37,679 nt of DNA from an uncultured Pelagibacteraceae bacterium (lineage in GTDB: Bacteria; Pseudomonadota; Alphaproteobacteria; Pelagibacterales; Pelagibacteraceae). Location: positions 1-37,679 of the forward strand of contig CABYJS010000009.1 in the NCBI GenBank assembly GCA_902519375.1, written 5' to 3'. The notes under the pieces are model-generated. The model had not been told where the DNA came from. It ran no database searches and worked only from the letters and a program-made list of their open reading frames with translations. How positions within the stretch are numbered: position 1 is the first letter of the stretch; every line of letters begins with the position of its first letter. This document shows, one piece after another, positions 9,566 through 22,545 of this stretch. A program made the position numbers and the translations under genes.

Positions 9566-9949
9566 CTAAATAAAATTTTTTCCTATTAAATAAAAAGTGA
9601 TAGTTAAAACTATTGATCCAATTATAACTATCAAGCCAGTAATTTTAGATGTTTGGAGTTCAAAACCATACCCGAAATCCATAATAAGATGTCTTATCTC
9701 ACTCAAAATCTGAAATAAAAATGACCATGTAAGACCTAAAATAATAAATTTACCCAAAAAAGAATTTAAAAAAAATTCTATAGTTTCGTATTTACTTTCA
9801 CCAAGTAAAAGTAGCGAAGCCCAAAGACATATCAAAGTAATTGCAACTATGTTTACTATACCAGTTATTCTATGAGAGATGGATACTAAAGATGAGATAT
9901 GCCATCTATAAATCTGAATATGGGGTGATAGGGGTTCCTTATTTTCCAT
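9566..9949 (-). CDS. sdhC: Succinate dehydrogenase cytochrome b556 subunit
   Basis: Anchor subunit of 127 residues with three membrane helices. It carries the quinone-site motif SISHRITGI near residue 25 and the heme-ligand His in EIRHLIMDFGYGFE. N-terminal PLSPHIQIYRWHISS is typical of alphaproteobacterial SdhC. The first 11 bases overlap the 3' end of asd, linking sdh expression to the upstream genes. Confidence 0.95.
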   Translation of the reverse strand: MENKEPLSPHIQIYRWHISSLVSISHRITGIVNIVAITLICLWASLLLLGESKYETIEFFLNSFLGKFIILGLTWSFLFQILSEIRHLIMDFGYGFELQTSKITGLIVIIGSIVLTITFYLIGKNFI

Positions 9950-10946
9950 AGTAATTATTTTTAATTAAAGTTTCAGCAATTTCTACTGCATTTAAAGCTG
10001 CTCCTCTTAAGAGATTATCTGAGACAATCCATAAATTTAATCCATTTTTAATTGTTTTATCCTCTCTAATTCTTGAGATAAATGTTTCATTTTTTCCTTC
10101 GGCATCAAGAGGAGTTGCATATCCTCCATCAACTCTTTCATCTATAACCTTACATCCCTCAAAATTCTCTAGGGCACTCCTTACCTTTTCTAATGAAAAA
10201 GGTTTTTCGAATTGAATATTAACTGACTCAGCATGTGATATTGATATTGGTAATCTTACACAAGTTGCTGTCAAATCTATTTTATCATCAAGAATCTTTT
10301 TTGTTTCATTTGTCATTTTAAGTTCTTCTTTTGTGTAACCAGAGTCTGAAAATTTGTCTATGTGCGGGATGGCATTAAAAGCTATTTGTTTTGTAAAATT
10401 TTTAGATACAATTTTTTTTCCATCTAATACAAATTTAGTTTGTTCAATTAATTCATCCATTGGCGCCTTGCCACCTCCTGAAACTGATTGATAAGTTGAG
10501 ACAACAACTCTTTTGATCACAAATAAATCATGTAAAGGTTTAAGAGCAATTACCAATTGTGCAGTAGAACAGTTGGGATTTGCAATTATGTTTTTTTTTA
10601 TACTATCTAAATCCTCTGAATTTACTTGAGGAACAATTAATGGAACATCTGGATCCATTCTAAAAAAGCTTGAATTATCTATAACCAATGAATTTTTTGA
10701 AGCTTTCTCAGCAAATTTTTCAGAAATTTTTCCTCCAGCTGCAAAGAAAATAATTTTAGCCTTTGAAAAATCAAAGCTATCTAATTCTTCAACCTCATAC
10801 TCTTTACCTCTAAATTTAATCTTTATCCCAGCACTTCTAGATGAGGCAACTAAATATAGATTATCAATTTCTAGTTCTTTTTTCTCAAGAACCTCTAAAG
10901 TTTTTCTACCAACATTTCCCGTTGCTCCTACAATTGCTATATTCAT
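9939..10946 (-). CDS. asd: Aspartate-semialdehyde dehydrogenase
   Basis: Reduces aspartyl phosphate to aspartate semialdehyde for lysine/diaminopimelate, threonine and methionine synthesis; 335 residues. It has the N-terminal NADP fold (IAIVGATGNVGRKTLEVL), the catalytic Cys126 in IANPNCSTAQ, the segment STYQSVSGGGKAPMDEL, and the Arg/His region CVRLPISISHAESVNI. It lies 20 bases after dmdA and overlaps sdhC by 11 bases. leuCDB next to asd is a familiar alphaproteobacterial order; here four DMSP genes separate them. Confidence 0.97.
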   Translation of the reverse strand: MNIAIVGATGNVGRKTLEVLEKKELEIDNLYLVASSRSAGIKIKFRGKEYEVEELDSFDFSKAKIIFFAAGGKISEKFAEKASKNSLVIDNSSFFRMDPDVPLIVPQVNSEDLDSIKKNIIANPNCSTAQLVIALKPLHDLFVIKRVVVSTYQSVSGGGKAPMDELIEQTKFVLDGKKIVSKNFTKQIAFNAIPHIDKFSDSGYTKEELKMTNETKKILDDKIDLTATCVRLPISISHAESVNIQFEKPFSLEKVRSALENFEGCKVIDERVDGGYATPLDAEGKNETFISRIREDKTIKNGLNLWIVSDNLLRGAALNAVEIAETLIKNNYYGK

Positions 10947-10966: not shown

Positions 10967-12076
10967 CTAAATGAAGGGTAAATCGCAAACTGTTCCTACA
11001 AATATTTTTTCGTTAATATCTATTTTAAATTGAGTTTTAGTATCCCAGTAAGGTTTATTTATCATTGCAATACCAATAACCTTTTTAAATGTTGGAGAAT
11101 ACGCTGCTGATCTAACATAACCTACAATTTTATTATTATCGTCAAGTAACGTCTTTTCACAATACATATCAATTTTATTATGATCAATTTGTACACCCAT
11201 CAATTTTCTAGTAACACCATCTTGCTTAATTTTTTTTAATCTCTCCTTACCTAAAAAATTAACTTCACTATCAAGATTTACAAACTTATCAAAGTTTGCT
11301 TCAAAAGGATTATCTCTATTATCAAAATCATTCCCATAAGATAATAACGCTGATTCAATTCTTTCAATTAAATTAGGGCATCCTGGCTTTACATTAAATT
11401 CTACCCCATATTCAAAAAGATAATCATATAAATCTTGACCAGCAAGATTGTCCTCTACATATATTTCAAAGCCAGTTTGTTTTGACCAACCTGACCTAGC
11501 AATGAAATATTTTTTACCCTTAAATTCATAATACTTAAAATTAAAAAATTTAAGTTGCCTTATTTCCTCTCCAAATATCTTTGCCATCAAATCATCTGAA
11601 AGAGGTCCTTGGACTGCTAAAATATTTACGTTTGGCTCCTTAATTTCAACTTCAAATTTATTTCCTGCCGCTAAACCTTTTGCAAAAAACAATACATCAG
11701 AGTCCGCAATTGATAACCACCATCTATCTTCTGCTAGTTTATTTATAATTGGATCATTAACTAGTAAACCCTGATCATCAATTAGTGGTGCATAATAACA
11801 TTTTCCAACTTTTGATTTAGATAAATCTCTACAAGTCATTAATTGGACTAATTTTGCAGAGTCTTTTCCTGAGATTTCTACTTGTCTTTCCGCAGCAACA
11901 TCCCATACTTGTACAAATTTTTTCAAATGTTCGTAATCAGACTCTAAAGATTTAAATGATGCTGGTAAAAGCATATGGTTATAAACTGTATAACTGGTTA
12001 CTCCACCAGACTCTATTCTGTCTGTGTAAGGAGTGCTTCTCAGTCTTCTCGATTTTACAATTGGAAAATTTTTCAT
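10967..12076 (-). CDS. dmdA: Dimethylsulfoniopropionate demethylase (DmdA)
   Basis: GcvT-fold, tetrahydrofolate-dependent enzyme that moves a methyl group from DMSP to THF, giving 3-methylmercaptopropionate (MMPA) and 5-methyl-THF. The 369-residue length equals what I recall for the Pelagibacter enzyme. Segments I recognise as DmdA rather than glycine cleavage T protein are [62 protein letters not shown], and [19 protein letters not shown]. The surrounding ligase and dehydrogenase genes for the next two steps support the call. The ATG overlaps the hydrolase stop by four bases (ATGA). No strong ribosome-binding site is visible, consistent with coupling. Confidence 0.94.
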
Positions 12077-12849
12077 TTTTTTAAAAATTCTAAGACCTTT
12101 TCTCTCATTTCAAATGCTTTTTCAATCATAATCATGTGACCACAGCCTTCTATTATATGTGTCTTGGAATTCTGGACTAAGCTTGCAAATTTCTTTCCTG
12201 CTTCTATGTTGACCATTTTGTCCAGCTTCCCAAAAATAAACATTACTGGACAGGTTATAACTTTAGCAGCCTCCGACCCATTGGTGTAATTGTTGCAAGC
12301 AATAAGATCTATGGCTAAAATTTCGCTGATGTCTCTTGGTGATTGGATAATTCTTTCTATTGGGTTGCCGCCAATGAATTTTTTGGGACCTTCATAACCC
12401 CATTTCATCATCAATTTAACTGCATCAGAATCTCCGTTAGAAGCTAAATCTATCAAATCTTTATTAACTGGCATTCGGTAAGATCCGCCAATAAAAACAA
12501 TTTTTTTTAATCTGTCTTTAAATTTATAGGAATATTCTAGCGCTTCTAAACAACCTTGAGAGTGTGCAATAATTGTTAGATTATTCAGATTTAACTGAAT
12601 AAATACTTTCTCCAACCAATCTGTAATTTTTTCAATACTATCTAAGCAAGGACCTTCGGAATTACCATGACCGGGTAAATCTATTGAAAGAACATTAAAA
12701 TTTTTACTAGAGAAGAACTGTTCTACTAAAGACCAAACTATGTGAGAAAGACCACTTCCGTGAAGGAATACTAATGTCTCTTTTGATTTATCAAGACCTT
12801 GTCCAGCATCAGATATATGGACATATTTTTTTTCTATATCAAATATCAA
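12073..12849 (-). CDS. Alpha/beta hydrolase embedded in the dmd cluster, function unknown
   Basis: Cytosolic alpha/beta-hydrolase of 258 residues starting at a TTG (12849) with a weak AGG motif upstream; no suitable ATG exists nearby. It has the oxyanion-hole segment [10 protein letters not shown], the nucleophile elbow AHSQG (Ser97), Asp210 in FGKLDKMV and His238 in GCGHMI, so the triad is intact, with a helical cap between roughly residues 125 and 195. It lies between dmdB (8 bases upstream) and dmdA (4-base overlap). It therefore probably acts on a DMSP-pathway intermediate, for instance as a thioesterase on MMPA-CoA or methylthioacryloyl-CoA, or in place of the missing DmdD. That role is speculation; the family and triad are directly seen. 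Confidence 0.85.
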
Positions 12850-12857
12850 TTGATCGC

Positions 12858-14474
12858 CTAAAATTTTTTTCTTAACTCAAATTTTTGAATTTTACCTGTT
12901 GATGTTTTTGGTAGCTCACAGAAAATTACCTCTTTAGGCACTTTAAAACCTGCCAAAGTTTCTTTGCAAAAATCAATTAAATCTTTACCACTAACAGGTT
13001 TATCTTTCACCATTTCAATAAATGCACACGGAACTTCTCCCCATTTTTCATCAGGTTTTGCAACTACTGCAGCAATAGATACAGATGGGTGCTTAGATAA
13101 AGTATTTTCTATTTCTATTGAAGATATGTTCTCTCCACCTGAAATAATAATATCTTTTGATCTATCTTGTATTTTTACATACCCATCTGGATGTATTACA
13201 GCTAAATCTCCAGAATGAAACCAGCCACCTGCCATTGCTTTGTCAGTTGCATCTTTATCTTTAAAATAACCTTTCATAACTACATTCCCTCTAAGCATAA
13301 TTTCTCCAATTGTCTTTCCATCTCTTGGTACTTCTTTCATGGTTTCAGGGTCCATTATAGTTGCGCCTTGTAAATTAGGGTACCTTACTCCTTGTCTTGC
13401 CTTTATCTCATTTTGTTTGTCTTCATCAAACTCGTTCCATTCATCATTCCATGCACATTGGGTTACATGACCATAAGTCTCTGTTAAACCATAGACATGC
13501 ATTACCTCAAAACCTAGTTCTTTCATCTTTTTAAAAATAATACTTGGTGGGGGAGCACCAGCAGTTAAGACATGAACTTTATGTTTCAATTTTTTTCTCT
13601 CATTTTCAGGAGCACCTGTGATCATATTTAATATAATGGGTGCACCGCCGAAGTGCGTAACGTTATATTTTTCTATTAATTCAAAAATTTTTTTTACATC
13701 TATATTTCTGAGACAAATCGTTCTTCCATTTAACATTGGTACTGTCCAGGGATAGCACCAGCCATTACAGTGGAACATTGGAACAATTGTTAAAAAATTT
13801 AATCTATTTGGCATGTTCCATGCTACAGCACTTCCAGTTGACATTAAGTATGATCCTCTGTGATGATAAACAACTCCCTTAGGATTTCCCGTAGTTCCAG
13901 AAGTATAACTTAAAGATATAGCTTGCCACTCATCTTCTGGCATTTTCCAAATATAATCATCATCACCAGTATTTAAAAAACTTTCGTATTCCAGGTCTCC
14001 AATTTTTTCTAATTTAGACTGGTCAGCAAACTTATCTTGGATATCAATTATAATAATTTTTTTATCTAAGCTATTAAGAGCTTTTTTTACTTCAAGATGA
14101 AGTTGTCTATCTACAACTAATACCTTCGCGTCACTGTGCTTTAAGATATATGAGATTGTATTAGCATCTAATCTGATATTAATTGTATTTAATACAGCAC
14201 CAGTCATAGGGACTGAATAATGTGCCTCAAAAATTTCTGGAGTATTAAATGCTAAAAATGATACTGTATCCCCCTTCTTGATACCAATCTTTTCTAATGC
14301 GCTGGCAAATTTAATTGCTCTTTTAAAAACTTCACTCCAGGTATATTTTCGATCCTCATAAACGATTGCCTCATAATTAGGATAAATATCTTTTGCTCTT
14401 TCTAAAAAAGATAATGGAGTTAATGGAACATAATTTGCTTTATTTTTATCTAAATTCGTATCGTAGTTACTCAT
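12858..14474 (-). CDS. dmdB: 3-methylmercaptopropionate-CoA ligase (DmdB)
   Basis: ANL-superfamily acyl-CoA synthetase of 538 residues that activates MMPA to MMPA-CoA with ATP. I place the start at the ATG 14474 (MSNYDTN), not the TTG nine bases upstream. It shows the P-loop-like YTSGTTGNPKG (about 190-200), VPMFHCNGWCYPW, YGLTETYG, the adenylate-binding WFHSGDLAVIHPDGYV, and the C-terminal catalytic Lys in PKTSTGKIQKFELR. On sequence alone it could be another medium/short-chain acyl-CoA ligase; position between dmdC and dmdA makes DmdB the best reading. The dmdC stop lies one base before the ATG. Confidence 0.88.
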   Translation of the reverse strand: MSNYDTNLDKNKANYVPLTPLSFLERAKDIYPNYEAIVYEDRKYTWSEVFKRAIKFASALEKIGIKKGDTVSFLAFNTPEIFEAHYSVPMTGAVLNTINIRLDANTISYILKHSDAKVLVVDRQLHLEVKKALNSLDKKIIIIDIQDKFADQSKLEKIGDLEYESFLNTGDDDYIWKMPEDEWQAISLSYTSGTTGNPKGVVYHHRGSYLMSTGSAVAWNMPNRLNFLTIVPMFHCNGWCYPWTVPMLNGRTICLRNIDVKKIFELIEKYNVTHFGGAPIILNMITGAPENERKKLKHKVHVLTAGAPPPSIIFKKMKELGFEVMHVYGLTETYGHVTQCAWNDEWNEFDEDKQNEIKARQGVRYPNLQGATIMDPETMKEVPRDGKTIGEIMLRGNVVMKGYFKDKDATDKAMAGGWFHSGDLAVIHPDGYVKIQDRSKDIIISGGENISSIEIENTLSKHPSVSIAAVVAKPDEKWGEVPCAFIEMVKDKPVSGKDLIDFCKETLAGFKVPKEVIFCELPKTSTGKIQKFELRKKF

Positions 14475-14475
14475 A

Positions 14476-16239
14476 TTAACCAAATTTGAAATTCATTATA
14501 TTTGAGCTTCCTGAAATAGCAGATTTATAATGTTGTTCAGCTCTTGGTAGAACCTTTTCAAAATAAAATTTTGCAGTATTTATCTTATTCTCATAAAATT
14601 TTTTATTTTCATCAAAATCCTTAAAACATACCTCAAGTACTTTAATCCAAGCATATGCAACGGACACATAACCAAGTGTTTTTAAATAATCATTTGCACC
14701 CGCACTTACATCATCCTTATCGGTTTTTGCTTTCTCAATCGTCCATTCACTAAATTTAGTTAAAATATTTAAATAATGACTAAATTTCTCAGTAAATGGA
14801 ATAATTCTATCATCGTTAGAATTAGTTTCAGATTTAACTAAATCTAAAAAGCTTTTAATTATGTTTCCATTTTTGTTTGATAATTTTCTAAAAACTAAAT
14901 CAGCCGCTTGAACTGAATTAGTGCCTTCATAAATTGGTGTAATTCTATTATCTCTATATAATTGCTCAACTCCTTGGTCTTTTGTATAACCATAACCTCC
15001 GTAAATCTGCATTGCATCATTTGTAATTTCCATGCCTAAATCTGTGAATAAAGACTTTACCACAGGAGTCATTAAGGAAACATAATCGGATGCTTCCTGA
15101 CGAACTTTTTCATCTGGATGATAAAGACTTACTTCCGTTTGTTGAGATAACCAAAAACATAATGCTCTTTCACCTTCTATAATTGATTTCATATTTAAAA
15201 GTGATCTTCTAATATCTGCATGCTCGATTATAAAATCTGCACCATTAGAGGACTTAGTATTATTTGTTTTGCCTTGTTTTCTTTCTTTCGCATAGGCTAG
15301 TGAATTTTGATAAGCAATTTCTGAAATTCCTAATCCTTGAATGCCAACAACAATTCTTTCAAGATTCATCATTGTAAACATTGAACTTAAACCTTTATCT
15401 TTTTTACCAATCATATATCCAGTAGCATCATCAAAGTTTAGAACACATGTTGCTGAACCTTTGATGCCCATTTTACTTTCAATAGATCCTGTTGATACTC
15501 CATTCCTTGGACCAATACTCCCATCTTCATTAACCACAAATTTTGGCACTAAAAATAAACTTATACCTTTTGTGCCAGCTGGTGAGTCTGTTGCTCTAGC
15601 AATTACTAAATGAATGATGTTTTCAGTAAGATCTTGATCACCAGAAGTAATAAATATTTTTTGACCACTAAGTTTATACGTTCCATCATTTTGTTTTTCA
15701 GCTTTTGTTTTAAGAAGCCCTAAGTCTGTTCCGCAAACTGGCTCAGTTAAACACATGGTTCCACTCCATTTTCCTTCAACAATTTTTGGTAAATATTTAT
15801 TTTTTATTTCTTCTGAAGCATGATGATTTATACAATTATATGCACCAATGCTAAGTTCACTATAAAGTTTAAATGATAAGCTCGCTGAAGAAAGCATCTC
15901 ATCAAAAAATGCGCTTACAGTTTTTGGCATTCCTTGACCACCGTATTTTGGGTCACAGGATAACGAAGTCCAACCATCCTCAATATATTTTTGGTATGCT
16001 TCTTTATATCCTGGCGGAGTTCTTACAATTCCATTTTCTAAAACTGCAGGATTTTCATCTCCAACTTTAGCAAGTGGTAAAATTAAATTTTGATTGATTT
16101 TTGCAGCTTCCTCTAAAATATCTTTAACAAGGTCTGCACTGACCTCTTTATATTTTTCTAATTCATTATAATTTTTATTGTCTCTTAATTTCTCAAAAAG
16201 AAACATCATATCTTCTACTGGTGCAGTATAGCTTGGCAT
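14476..16239 (-). CDS. dmdC: 3-methylmercaptopropionyl-CoA dehydrogenase (DmdC)
   Basis: Long-form acyl-CoA dehydrogenase of 587 residues, the DmdC length. It oxidises MMPA-CoA to methylthioacryloyl-CoA using FAD. Visible features are the N-terminal segment MPSYTAPVEDMMFLFEKL, CLTEPVCGTDLG and FITSGDQDLTENIIHLV (FAD/substrate region). YGGYGYTKDQGVEQLYRD is followed by ITPIYEGTNSVQ with the catalytic Glu. An extra C-terminal helical domain is present, as in this subfamily. It opens the dmd group, 28 bases after leuB, with no terminator between. Confidence 0.9.
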   Translation of the reverse strand: MPSYTAPVEDMMFLFEKLRDNKNYNELEKYKEVSADLVKDILEEAAKINQNLILPLAKVGDENPAVLENGIVRTPPGYKEAYQKYIEDGWTSLSCDPKYGGQGMPKTVSAFFDEMLSSASLSFKLYSELSIGAYNCINHHASEEIKNKYLPKIVEGKWSGTMCLTEPVCGTDLGLLKTKAEKQNDGTYKLSGQKIFITSGDQDLTENIIHLVIARATDSPAGTKGISLFLVPKFVVNEDGSIGPRNGVSTGSIESKMGIKGSATCVLNFDDATGYMIGKKDKGLSSMFTMMNLERIVVGIQGLGISEIAYQNSLAYAKERKQGKTNNTKSSNGADFIIEHADIRRSLLNMKSIIEGERALCFWLSQQTEVSLYHPDEKVRQEASDYVSLMTPVVKSLFTDLGMEITNDAMQIYGGYGYTKDQGVEQLYRDNRITPIYEGTNSVQAADLVFRKLSNKNGNIIKSFLDLVKSETNSNDDRIIPFTEKFSHYLNILTKFSEWTIEKAKTDKDDVSAGANDYLKTLGYVSVAYAWIKVLEVCFKDFDENKKFYENKINTAKFYFEKVLPRAEQHYKSAISGSSNIMNFKFG

Positions 16240-16267: not shown

Positions 16268-17374
16268 TTATTGCAATTTTGAAATTATCGCATCACCCAT
16301 TTGAGAGGTAGAGACCTCTTTCATTTTATCTGATAATATATCCTTTGTTCGTAAACCATCATTTAATACATCTTGTACTGCTTGTTCTAGGGCCTCAGCT
16401 TCCCTATCAAGATCTAATGAATATCTCAAAGCCATCGCAAAGCTTAATATAGTAGCAATTGGGTTTGCTATCCCTTTTCCTGCTATATCTGGCGCTGATC
16501 CATGAATTGGCTCATACATTGCTCTCATCTCACCATCTTTGTTTTTTGCACCCAGTGACGCTGAAGGTAAAAGTCCTAAGGACCCAGTTAACATTGAAGC
16601 TTGGTCAGATAACATGTCCCCAAATAAATTATCAGTAACAATTACATCAAATTGTTTTGGATTTCTTAACAACTGCATTGCACAATTGTCAGCAAGCATA
16701 TGACTTAATTCTACATCCTTATATTCTTTTTCATGTAAAGCTTGAACCTCTTCTTTCCAAAGTTGTCCGGCCTCCATTACGTTGGATTTTTCACAAGATG
16801 TAACTTTATTTGATCTTTTTTTTGCTAAATCAAAAGCAACTTTTGCTACTCTAATTATTTCATTACTAGTGTAAGTATGAGTATTAATTCCTTTTCTTTC
16901 GCCATTTTCAATCGGCTTAATTCCTCTTGGCTCACCAAAATATATTCCACCTGTAAGTTCCCTTACAATCATTATATCTAAACCTGAAACAATTTCTGGT
17001 TTTAAGGTTGAGGCATCAACTAATTGTTTAAAACATATTGCGGGTCTGAGATTTGCAAATAATTTCAATTCTTTTCTAAGTTTCAATAATGCTCTTTCAG
17101 GTTTTTTTGAAAACTCAACATTGTCCCATTTAGGTCCACCAACTGCTCCTAACATTACTACTGCACTCTCTAATGCTTTATAAAATACTTCATCTGTTAT
17201 AGGAGTACCATGCTTATCAAACGAACAGCCTCCAGCAAAATCTTGATCTATTTCAAAATCAAGAGATTTTTTATCATTAAACCAATTGATTATCTTTTTT
17301 ACTTCTCCAATAACTTCAGGTCCAATACCATCGCCTGGCAACAATAGAATTTTTCTTTTCTTAACTTTAATCAT
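16268..17374 (-). CDS. leuB: 3-isopropylmalate dehydrogenase
   Basis: Oxidative decarboxylation step of leucine synthesis, NAD-dependent, 368 residues. It has [16 protein letters not shown] at the N-terminus, the substrate Arg stretch [31 protein letters not shown], the metal-binding [17 protein letters not shown], and the NAD site [18 protein letters not shown]. It overlaps leuD by eight bases. Confidence 0.97.
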
Positions 17375-17972
17375 TAAAAATCCAGGGCTTTTTACCTTTT
17401 AAATTATTTTCAAAAGTTTGAATCTTATCTGTTTTTTTTAAAGATAAAGCTATGTCATCTAATCCCTCTAATAAACATTTCTTTTTAAATGGGTCTATTT
17501 TGAAATTAACTTCACTGTTTCCATAAATAATCTTTTCTTCACTTAGATTTATTGAAATTTCTTCTTTTCTGTTTGCATATTCTGACAGCTCTTTAATTTT
17601 TTCATCGTTAAGAATAATTGGTAAAATTCCATTTTTAAAACAATTGCTGTAAAATATATCAGCGAAACTCGAGCTAATAACACAAGTAATTCCAAAATCT
17701 AGTAACGCCCATGGAGCATGTTCTCTTGAAGAACCACACCCAAAGTTTTTACCTGCTATTAAAATTTTTGATTTACTAAAAGGATTTTGATTTAACACAA
17801 AATCGTTAATTTCATTTCCACTATCGTCATATCTCATCTCAAAAAACAAGTTCTTGCCTAGACCGGTTCTTTTAATAGTTTTTAAAAATTGTTTTGGGAT
17901 TATCATATCTGTATCAATATTAACGATTGGCAAATAAGCAGGAATGCTTTTCAATGTATTAAATTTTTGCAT
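17367..17972 (-). CDS. leuD: 3-isopropylmalate dehydratase small subunit
   Basis: Aconitase-swivel subunit of isopropylmalate isomerase, 201 residues. The conserved [22 protein letters not shown] is present near residue 73, and [15 protein letters not shown] is the typical N-terminal segment. It follows leuC with one base between and overlaps leuB, so the leuCDB unit is tightly coupled. Confidence 0.97.
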
Positions 17973-17973
17973 C

Positions 17974-19377
17974 TTAATTTTGATACTTTCTTACATCATC
18001 AAGATTTCCAGAAATAGCAGCTGCGGCTGCCATACCTGGGCTTACTAAATGAGTTCTGCCACCTCTTCCTTGTCTGCCCTCAAAATTTCTATTTGATGTA
18101 GATGCACATCTTTCTTGGGGTTTTAATTTGTCTGCATTCATTGCTAAACACATAGAACACCCTGGCTCTCTCCATTCAAATCCAGAATTTACAAAGATTT
18201 TGTCTAATCCTTCTTGTTCTGCCTGTTCTTTTACTAAACCTGAACCAGGAACAACCATAGCATGAACATGGGTGGCTATCTTTTTATCTTTTAGAATTTT
18301 TGCAGCTTCTCTCAAATCCTCTATTCTTCCATTAGTACAACTTCCTATAAAAACTTTATCTATCTTAATATCTTTAGCTGCCATGTTAGGTTTTAATCCC
18401 ATATAATTTAAAGATCTCTCTAAAGAATTTTTTCTATCTTCATCTTCTTCATTTTGTGGATTTGGAACCTTTCCATCTATTGTAATGACATCTTGTGGAG
18501 ATGTCCCCCAAGTTATCATTGGTAAAATTTCTTCTGCTTTAAGATTTATCTCTTTGTCAAATTTAGCGCCATCATCTGTTCTTAAATTTTTCCAATGTTC
18601 TATAGCTTTATGCCATGTTTCACCTTTTGGAGACATTGGTTTGCCCTCTAAATATTTAAATATTTTTTCATCAGGTGCTATTAATCCTGCTCTAGCACCT
18701 CCCTCAATAGTCATATTACAAATAGTCATTCTTTGTTCTACGCTTAAAGACCTAATTAAGTTACCCGCATATTCTATTACACAACCTGTTCCACCTGCAG
18801 TACCAATTTTTCCAATTATTTGAAGAATTACGTCTTTGGAGGTAACGCCTAATGGAAGTTTGCCATCAACATTTACTCTAAAGTTTTTTGCTTTTTTTTG
18901 TACTAGAGTTTGGGTTGCTAATACATGCTCTACCTCTGAAGTTCCAATTCCAAATGCTAATGAACCAAATGCACCATGCGTTGCTGTATGGCTATCACCA
19001 CAAACAATTACTGTTCCAGGTTGGGTAAAACCTTGCTCTGGTCCAATTATATGTACTATACCTTGTCTTTTATCTCCCATCCCAAATAGTTGAATACCAA
19101 ATTCTTTACAGTTAGACTCTAAGGTATCAACTTGTATTTTAGACTCTTCATCTGAGATACCTTTTGATCTATCAGTTGTTGGAACATTATGATCTGCAAC
19201 TGCAAGTGTTAGTTTTGGATGTCTTACTTTACGATTAGAATTTCTAAGTCCTTCAAACGCCTGGGGACTAGTTACTTCGTGAACTAAATGTCTGTCAACA
19301 AACAATAAGGCTGTACCGTCATCTTGTTGATCGACTAAGTGATCATTCCAAATTTTATCGTAAAGAGTATTGGGCAT
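17974..19377 (-). CDS. leuC: 3-isopropylmalate dehydratase large subunit
   Basis: Iron-sulfur aconitase-type subunit of 467 residues, converting 2- to 3-isopropylmalate with LeuD. It shows [38 protein letters not shown], and the [4Fe-4S] cysteines in [13 protein letters not shown] and [13 protein letters not shown], with [13 protein letters not shown] near the end. It starts 11 bases after rplS, with only an A/T run in the gap. Confidence 0.98.
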
Positions 19378-22444: not shown

Positions 22445-22468
22445 ATTTATTACACACAGCAGTAATCG

Positions 22469-22545
22469 CACTAGTGGGCGAACCCTCGCTGACTAGTGTC
22501 GATCTCTTTGTTTCCAAAGACACCGCAAATTTAACGTTTTTGCGG
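22469..22545 (-). ncRNA. Structured leader RNA of ffh
   Basis: Read on the minus strand, three hairpins stand before ffh. The first pairs CCGCAAA with TTTGCGG (22539-22545 with 22523-22529). The second is CTTTG-GAAA-CAAAG (22506-22519), a GNRA-capped stem enclosed by GTGTC/GACAC (22519-22523 with 22496-22500). The third pairs CACTAGT with ACTAGTG (22492-22498 with 22469-22475), enclosing an inner GCGA/TCGC stem. The GTGTC/GACAC pairing and the third stem share bases 22496-22498, so they may be alternatives. The stretch is much more GC-rich than nearby spacers. I recall an Rfam family named ffh from marine alphaproteobacteria; membership cannot be tested here. It may control ffh expression. 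Confidence 0.7.

What the first reader, a model, noticed from the sequence alone, without database searches (positions are those of the whole stretch)
10967..16239. Compact DMSP demethylation operon with an unexplained alpha/beta hydrolase between dmdB and dmdA
Seen: the order dmdC, dmdB, hydrolase, dmdA with gaps of 1-8 bases or 4-base overlaps. Known: DmdA, DmdB and DmdC turn DMSP into methylthioacryloyl-CoA, and DmdD or AcuH (crotonase fold) finishes the pathway. No crotonase is encoded in this window. The hydrolase has a complete Ser97-Asp210-His238 triad and is translationally coupled to dmdA. Inference: it may replace or assist the last step, act as an MMPA-CoA/methylthioacryloyl-CoA thioesterase that prevents CoA trapping or acryloyl toxicity, or process another DMSP-related ester.
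Basis: partly seen in the sequence, partly recalled or inferred. Interest (0 to 1): 0.78.

Follow-up and report, generated by a model that had tools for sequence, protein, structure and literature searches.

The report
MetY-partner hydrolase moved into DMSP operon
In SAR11, very abundant ocean bacteria, a hydrolase gene that elsewhere sits beside a methionine-making enzyme is found inside the gene cluster that breaks down the algal sulfur compound DMSP, where it probably helps to finish the release and capture of its sulfur.

Summary
The window is SAR11; dmdC-dmdB-hydrolase-dmdA lies at 16239-10967, minus strand, with an intact Ser97/Asp210/His238 triad. In the 80 best-matching relatives dmdA always follows the hydrolase, usually with a 4-base overlap.

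The hydrolase belongs to a family that outside SAR11 sits directly behind one MetY subtype (PRK08134: 25 of 25 genomes tested; 0 of 19 tested hydrolase-less genomes have that subtype). Among 238 named genomes of the window's family, 139 have the dmd-linked form, 57 a second form (metY-linked in 19 of the 20 genomes looked at), none both. All 139 have dmdA. Of 33 without dmdA, 29 have neither form. Crotonases are not missing: the draft genome has two crotonase-fold genes, and deep lineages put one beside the hydrolase.

Best reading: a serine hydrolase of the methanethiol branch of DMSP breakdown, most likely the thioesterase that clears the CoA ester left once methanethiol is released, a half-reaction that DmdD does by itself. 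A role in this pathway is well supported; the substrate is inferred. Replacing DmdD outright is unlikely.

The parts
14476..16239 (-). dmdC: acyl-CoA dehydrogenase, 587 aa (MMPA-CoA dehydrogenase)
   Evidence: ORF; Pfam Acyl-CoA_dh domains; phmmer to 6ijc_A E 2.5e-151, (that 6ijc is a characterised DmdC is recalled)
12858..14483 (-). dmdB: acyl-CoA synthetase, 541 aa (TTG start; ATG three codons in)
   Evidence: PRK08162 859 bits over cut-off, 3-(methylthio)propionyl-CoA ligase equivalog not reached
12073..12849 (-). alpha/beta hydrolase (called abh1 here), 258 aa, triad Ser97-Asp210-His238; the gene in question
   Evidence: Pfam Abhydrolase_1/6; no NCBIfam model over its cut-off; family conservation
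12073..12076 (-). 4-base stop/start overlap (ATGA) between hydrolase and dmdA
   Evidence: overlap of 4 in 63 and of 1 in 17 of 80 related loci
10967..12076 (-). dmdA: DMSP demethylase, 369 aa
   Evidence: NF009133 550 of 410 bits; 3tfh_A E 7e-173 over 1-369
9939..10946 (-). asd (aspartate-semialdehyde dehydrogenase; name recalled from sequence), downstream neighbour
   Evidence: ORF; found behind dmdA in 76 of 80 loci
16268..19377 (-). leuB, leuD, leuC (names recalled from sequence), upstream neighbours
   Evidence: ORF; leuB found in 70 of 80 loci

Best explanation
The hydrolase is the SAR11 form of a family of serine alpha/beta hydrolases whose usual partner is a MetY of the PRK08134 type (MetY makes methionine from O-acetylhomoserine and a thiol such as methanethiol). 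In one SAR11 clade it lies in the dmd operon, upstream of and overlapping dmdA. It works in the stretch between methylthioacryloyl-CoA and methionine. Most likely chemistry (inferred): a crotonase made elsewhere in the genome, best the FadB-like protein that keeps both catalytic glutamates, hydrates methylthioacryloyl-CoA; methanethiol falls off and leaves malonate-semialdehyde-CoA (intermediate recalled, not seen in a passage); the hydrolase splits that thioester and frees CoA, and the acid decays to acetaldehyde and CO2. The two enzymes would share out the hydration and hydrolysis that DmdD performs alone. Shown: gene order, triad, conservation, co-occurrence, mutual exclusion of the two forms in the sample, MetY linkage. 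Inferred: substrate, thioesterase activity, which crotonase is used.
For: dmd-linked form only in genomes with dmdA (139 of 139) and never with the second form (139, 57 and 0 of 238 named f1 genomes) (transcribed). Adjacent to dmdA in 101 of 101 pairs checked. Eleven SAR11 genomes without dmdA have neither form; 10 of the 11 keep another MetY and the 7 of them tested have a MetX, so ordinary methionine synthesis does not need it. Outside the order, 25 of 25 tested family members lie directly behind a PRK08134 MetY; 0 of 19 tested genomes without the hydrolase have that type. Deep SAR11 loci: dmdA-abh-crotonase(PRK08139)-OsmC-dmdB-dmdC and, in L129, a FadB-like gene; the crotonase is next to abh in 10 of the 14 genomes of other f1 genera that have both (coordinates). 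In 9 of 20 neighbourhoods outside the order, metY-abh lies near dmdA, dmdB-, dmdC-, FadB- or PRK08139-like genes. DmdD does both hydration and thioester hydrolysis (PMC3660561, passages); P. ubique lacks DmdD and the last enzyme is given as hypothesised (PMC5069961, passage).
Against: No substrate evidence; sequence and fold matches are generic esterases, lipases and C-C hydrolases, on a modest model (mean pLDDT 66). Outside SAR11 the MetY linkage also holds in genomes without an over-cut-off DmdA (11 of 20), so the family's base role may not concern DMSP. 66 of 205 named f1 genomes with dmdA lack the dmd-linked form, 13 of them lack both forms, and 4 genomes with the second form have no dmdA match that I counted. 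The order's second family (f2) has 50 genomes with sub-cut-off DmdA-like matches and no close hydrolase (best E 1e-13). The clustered crotonase PRK08139 lacks both catalytic glutamates, and in the window's own genus it does not follow dmdA: 8 of 10 genomes counted as lacking dmdA have it.
Confidence: 0.4

Rival explanations
1. MetY-side thiol supplier: the hydrolase splits S-methyl thioesters or another methylthio ester and hands methanethiol to MetY, so it serves any source of methanethiol, DMSP included. This would explain why it partners MetY in most lineages and dmdA in SAR11.
For: Linkage to PRK08134 MetY in 25 of 25 tested; the two SAR11 forms exclude each other in the sample; R. rubrum and R. 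palustris recycle methanethiol through O-acetylhomoserine sulfhydrylase, and for R. rubrum the release of free methanethiol from a glutathione adduct is given only as proposed routes (PMC4958253, PMC5893883, passages).
Against: No such S-methyl ester is established in this pathway as far as I know; 0 of 9 abh1 genomes of the window's genus tested have the PRK08134 MetY over cut-off, and the window genome's own metY lies on another contig behind a SAM-V riboswitch.
Confidence: 0.22
2. Housekeeping hydrolase of methionine synthesis, for example one that opens homocysteine thiolactone or removes an acyl side product of MetY, carried along with dmdA for expression reasons.
For: MetY linkage; small-molecule esterase and lactonase-like fold matches.
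Against: Of 11 SAR11 genomes without dmdA that were tested, 10 keep a MetY and none has the hydrolase, so the need seems to go with DMSP demethylation, not with methionine synthesis.
Confidence: 0.15
3. The hydrolase replaces DmdD outright and releases methanethiol from methylthioacryloyl-CoA by itself.
For: No DmdD in P. ubique (PMC5069961, passage); operon position.
Against: Hydration of a double bond is crotonase chemistry; the genome has two crotonase-fold genes and deep lineages encode one next to the hydrolase.
Confidence: 0.06
4. A homoserine O-acyltransferase of the MetX fold that feeds MetY.
For: Same fold class (recalled); MetY linkage.
Against: A full-length MetX match (442-464 bits, below the curated 500) is present in 24 of 24 SAR11 genomes tested, with and without the hydrolase; the hydrolase is about 100 residues shorter and the MetX model is not among its 25 NCBIfam matches.
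Confidence: 0.04
5. A passenger gene kept only because it lies inside an operon.
For: It is less conserved than dmdB and dmdC (76-87% identity to the window's copy against 87-95% and 78-94% over the 80 loci) and is absent from the operon in 66 of 205 named f1 genomes with dmdA.
Against: Invariant triad and many other invariant residues; kept in small genomes; a second form is present in 53 of those 66; the pair abh-dmdA stands alone in L078, where dmdB and dmdC are not upstream.
Confidence: 0.06

Closest known systems
DmdD (methylthioacryloyl-CoA hydratase, Ruegeria pomeroyi)
   Same: Last step of DMSP demethylation; includes hydrolysis of a CoA thioester (PMC3660561, passages)
   Different: Crotonase fold with two catalytic glutamates and an own hydration activity; the window protein is an alpha/beta hydrolase with a Ser-Asp-His triad
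PRK08134 MetY plus alpha/beta hydrolase gene pair of Alphaproteobacteria
   Same: Same hydrolase family by profile and tree; the SAR11 second form shares the invariant motifs and a 4-base overlap with its partner gene (5 of 5 loci)
   Different: In this window the partner is dmdA, not metY; the metY of the genome is below the PRK08134 cut-off and lies on another contig
dmd gene cluster of SAR11
   Same: Same genes and order in 79-80 of 80 SAR11 loci
   Different: This window is a typical member; deep lineages have extra genes
MetX homoserine O-acetyltransferase
   Same: alpha/beta hydrolase fold (recalled), supplies MetY
   Different: About 350 residues; encoded separately in 24 of 24 SAR11 genomes tested
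Small-molecule esterases and meta-cleavage hydrolases (3e0x, 4opm, MhpC, HsaD)
   Same: Fold and about 20% identity
   Different: No operon link known to me; in the rows shown none is named as an acyl-CoA enzyme (60 of 116 rows shown, 50 rows each)

Membership tests
DMSP demethylase DmdA | passes the NCBIfam DMSP demethylase equivalog NF009133 | tested here: met
   550 bits against 410
MMPA-CoA ligase DmdB | passes the 3-(methylthio)propionyl-CoA ligase equivalog PRK07008 | tested here: not met
   344 of 822 bits; it passes the broader PRK08162 instead. Called DmdB here by position and pathway only
MMPA-CoA dehydrogenase DmdC | long acyl-CoA dehydrogenase with Acyl-CoA_dh_C domain | tested here: met
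   no specific NCBIfam equivalog passed
DmdD / AcuH crotonases | crotonase fold with two catalytic glutamates | tested here: not met
   the hydrolase matches no crotonase model in Pfam or NCBIfam
MetX homoserine acetyltransferase | match to TIGR01392 over full length | tested here: not met
   TIGR01392 is not among the 25 NCBIfam matches of the hydrolase; the genome's MetX match lies on contig C23
MetY-partner alpha/beta hydrolases | groups with them by sequence and shares invariant residues | tested here: met
MetY-partner alpha/beta hydrolases | gene directly downstream of a PRK08134 MetY | tested here: not met
   here it is downstream of dmdB and upstream of dmdA; a relative by descent, not a member by gene linkage
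acyl-CoA thioesterases | hydrolysis of an acyl-CoA in vitro | not testable with these tools
   needs purified protein

The most novel reading that the evidence does not exclude
The family is a new type of enzyme that liberates or hands over methanethiol for MetY, used in many Alphaproteobacteria and rewired in SAR11 to DMSP; it is the unrecognised enzyme that couples DMSP demethylation to methionine synthesis in the ocean's most abundant cells.
Probability: 0.2. Interest if true: 0.78.

Novelty: new variant of a known kind. Interest (0 to 1): 0.6.

Why it matters
SAR11 cells are major DMSP consumers, and how they finish demethylation without DmdD is given as hypothetical in print (PMC5069961, passage). 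The gene distribution points to a small, testable set of proteins: this hydrolase, the FadB-like protein and the PRK08139 crotonase. It also marks a MetY-hydrolase pair, found in many alphaproteobacterial genomes, whose hydrolase passes no NCBIfam model in the copy tested.

Tried and rejected
Rejected: the hydrolase as MetX; as a DmdD-like crotonase; as a sporadic insertion. Doubted: the PRK08139 crotonase as a plain hydratase, because the two glutamate positions read Gln and Gly in the three copies aligned, whereas the FadB-like protein keeps both (alignment to 6ium).

Led nowhere: structure and fold comparisons give only generic alpha/beta hydrolases; families not listed there are not excluded. 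Paper searches for a MetY-linked hydrolase or for SAR11_0247 (locus tag recalled) showed nothing on it in their listings. I saw passages of PMC5069961, PMC2704228, PMC5395565 (and its section 13), PMC3660561, PMC5651017, PMC12262181, PMC4958253 and PMC5893883, and no whole paper. Most subscription papers are not in that library, so absence from print is not shown.

Limits of the counts. Sets were copied by hand with cut-offs that I chose: abh1 best E under 1e-90, abh2 E under 1e-160, dmdA E under 1e-85 (five weak or cut matches counted as present). Many genomes are incomplete drafts. metY linkage of abh2 was looked at in 20 of 57 genomes (17 by coordinates, all but G120, whose abh2 is at a contig start; 3 more). 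Fisher values ignore shared ancestry, and I draw no probability from them. The 80 loci are the best 80 of 416, so close kin. The 25 and 19 genomes were picked by me, mostly from the top of the hit list and from the first listed genomes without a match, many of them small; 25 of the 73 hits outside the window's genus were used. In one search, 16 of 18 loci outside the order showed metY by my ORF picking; two searches found it in the other two (G324, G383). No chance expectation was computed for the neighbours.
Full report
What is there. The window is contig C9 of a draft genome of 873 kb, 74.7% complete; the 80 best-matching loci all bear Pelagibacteraceae, Pelagibacterales or Pelagibacter titles, so it is SAR11. 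On the minus strand lie leuC, leuD, leuB, dmdC, dmdB, the hydrolase, dmdA, asd and sdh genes (leu, asd and sdh names recalled from sequence). The finding's coordinates, spacing and triad are right. DmdA passes its curated model and aligns end to end with 3tfh (that 3tfh is P. ubique DmdA is recalled). DmdB passes the broad PRK08162 model and not the MMPA-CoA ligase equivalog, so its name rests on position.

Conservation in close kin. A scan of one genome per species found 416 relatives, of which the best 80 were kept. All 80 have dmdA directly behind the hydrolase, overlapping by 4 bases in 63 and by 1 in 17; 79 have dmdB in front. In the exception, L078, the 8 kb upstream hold none of leuD, leuB, dmdC and dmdB but a pilin-like and a large repeat protein (my reading of the ORFs); hydrolase and dmdA are still together.

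Distribution in SAR11. Five searches covered 297 genomes of the order. The 238 named genomes of the window's family (f1) fall into these sets: 139 with the dmd-linked form (abh1), all with dmdA; 57 with a second form (abh2, about 40% identical to the window's), 53 of them with dmdA and 4 without a dmdA match that I counted; none with both forms; 13 with dmdA and neither form; 29 with neither dmdA nor a form. In 101 of 101 coordinate pairs checked abh1 and dmdA are neighbours. Of the 13, nine have no MetY match in their drafts, which fits a missing stretch since abh2 sits beside metY, but also fits loss of both; one abh2 genome, G120, also gave no MetY, its abh2 lying at a contig start. G090 and G105 also lack dmdC. 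G130 has only a weak dmdA match and G286 only a weak hydrolase match; I did not inspect them. In 10 of 10 loci fetched from dmdA genomes without abh1, dmdB is followed directly by dmdA; in 9 the leuB-to-asd surroundings are visible and the same. Fourteen coordinate gaps, 7 of them in those same genomes, likewise leave room for dmdB only (1,636-1,688 bases).

Second family of the order. Of f2, 50 genomes have DmdA-like matches, none over the curated cut-off (41 at E 1e-86 or better), and no close hydrolase relative (best E 1e-13). If those are true DmdAs, they speak against a strict need for the hydrolase.

The second form. In 5 of 5 abh2 loci fetched, the gene overlaps by 4 bases the end of an ORF of metY size; L123's passes PRK08134. 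By coordinates a MetY lies directly upstream in 16 of 17 abh2 genomes searched. In L126 a SAM-V riboswitch lies between abh2 and a further metY-sized ORF (the matching ORF of L123 is of the same enzyme family). Among 32 SAR11 genomes tested, PRK08134 MetY over cut-off was found only in the abh2 genomes (4 of 4); the others with a MetY have a lower-scoring type.

Outside the order. A profile of the family found it in 75 of 289 genomes sampled from the class (two of them from the window's genus), one match each. For 25 of the other 73, a PRK08134 MetY over cut-off lies directly upstream on the same strand, 5 to 76 bases between matches; of 19 genomes without the hydrolase none has that MetY type, 6 have another. 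In 20 larger neighbourhoods, 9 hold at least one of dmdA (2), dmdB-like at 51-66% (5), dmdC-like at 37-40% (2), FadB-like at 37-57% (5) or PRK08139-like crotonase at 53% (1). Nine of these 20 genomes have an over-cut-off DmdA. A tree of 30 rows puts abh1 as one clade (100/100) among metY-linked forms; SAR11 abh2 groups with a form from another family, G456, at 100/100. With metY linkage on both sides of the midpoint root, dmd linkage is best read as derived; that root is for drawing only.

The extra genes of deep lineages. In G164 (L129) and G242 (L131) the cluster reads dmdA, hydrolase, PRK08139 crotonase, OsmC, dmdB, dmdC, then a long gene that in L129 is a 3-hydroxyacyl-CoA dehydrogenase/crotonase (FadB-like) protein (the L131 copy was not tested). 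G283 (L130) has a methylenetetrahydrofolate reductase gene between dmdB and dmdC. By coordinates the crotonase is next to the hydrolase in 10 of the 14 genomes of the other f1 genera that have both. In those genera the crotonase follows dmdA: 15 with both, 2 with dmdA only, 0 with the crotonase only, 23 with neither. In the window's own genus it does not: 8 of 10 genomes counted as lacking dmdA have it. The window's own genome has copies of the crotonase and of a FadB-like protein on contig C2. The three PRK08139 proteins aligned lack both catalytic glutamates, while the FadB-like one keeps them; DmdD and AcuH need both (PMC3660561 and PMC5651017, passages).

How it most likely works. DmdD hydrates methylthioacryloyl-CoA, methanethiol leaves, and the thioester is hydrolysed (PMC3660561, passages). 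A plain hydratase would stop at a CoA ester, so a separate thioesterase is chemically called for. A Ser-Asp-His hydrolase that overlaps dmdA, sits beside dmdB, in deep lineages beside a crotonase-fold gene, and elsewhere beside an enzyme that can consume methanethiol, fits that slot. This step is inference. The MetY linkage in genomes without DmdA leaves the rival that the enzyme supplies or protects methanethiol from other sources. MetX is an unlikely job for it, since a MetX match is separate in 24 of 24 genomes.

Structure. A model from 23 close sequences (mean pLDDT 66) and two comparisons with solved structures give ordinary alpha/beta hydrolases: small esterases, haloperoxidases and C-C hydrolases. 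They do not point to a substrate.

Verdict. Real, conserved and tied to the DMSP-methanethiol pathway in SAR11; unlikely to be a DmdD substitute by itself; substrate unknown. The most useful new facts are the MetY partnership and the either-or of the two forms in SAR11.

Noticed in passing
window 10967-12076 and L003-L082: dmdA is mosaic in SAR11: against the window's copy 26 of 80 loci are at 80% or more, 54 below 75%, none between, while hydrolase and dmdB show no such split (asd next door is split too, 14 of 76 between 60 and 65%). This suggests swapping of whole dmdA alleles at a fixed place.
   Followed up: partly
L123 and L162: The metY-hydrolase pair of a SAR11 genome (L123) is 86% and 75% identical to that of a genome of another family (G456), which has FadB-like, dmdB, metY and hydrolase genes in a row; looks like horizontal transfer.
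   Followed up: partly
L129, L131: An OsmC-like protein is encoded inside the dmd cluster of two deep SAR11 lineages; osmC is the most induced gene of P. ubique under DMSP sulfur limitation in PMC5069961 (passages).
   Followed up: no
L001 1495-2265: PRK08139-type crotonase without the two catalytic glutamates; it follows dmdA in other f1 genera but not in the window's own genus; its reaction is unknown to me.
   Followed up: partly
L078 2629-7978: Upstream of the hydrolase, where dmdB and dmdC are expected, lie a large repeat-bearing surface-like protein and a pilin-like protein (names are my reading).
   Followed up: no
window 22460-22513: ffh sRNA motif (RF01793) at the start of an SRP54 (ffh) gene.
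   Followed up: no
L200 2351-2417: In the window's genome the metY is preceded by a SAM-V riboswitch.
   Followed up: no
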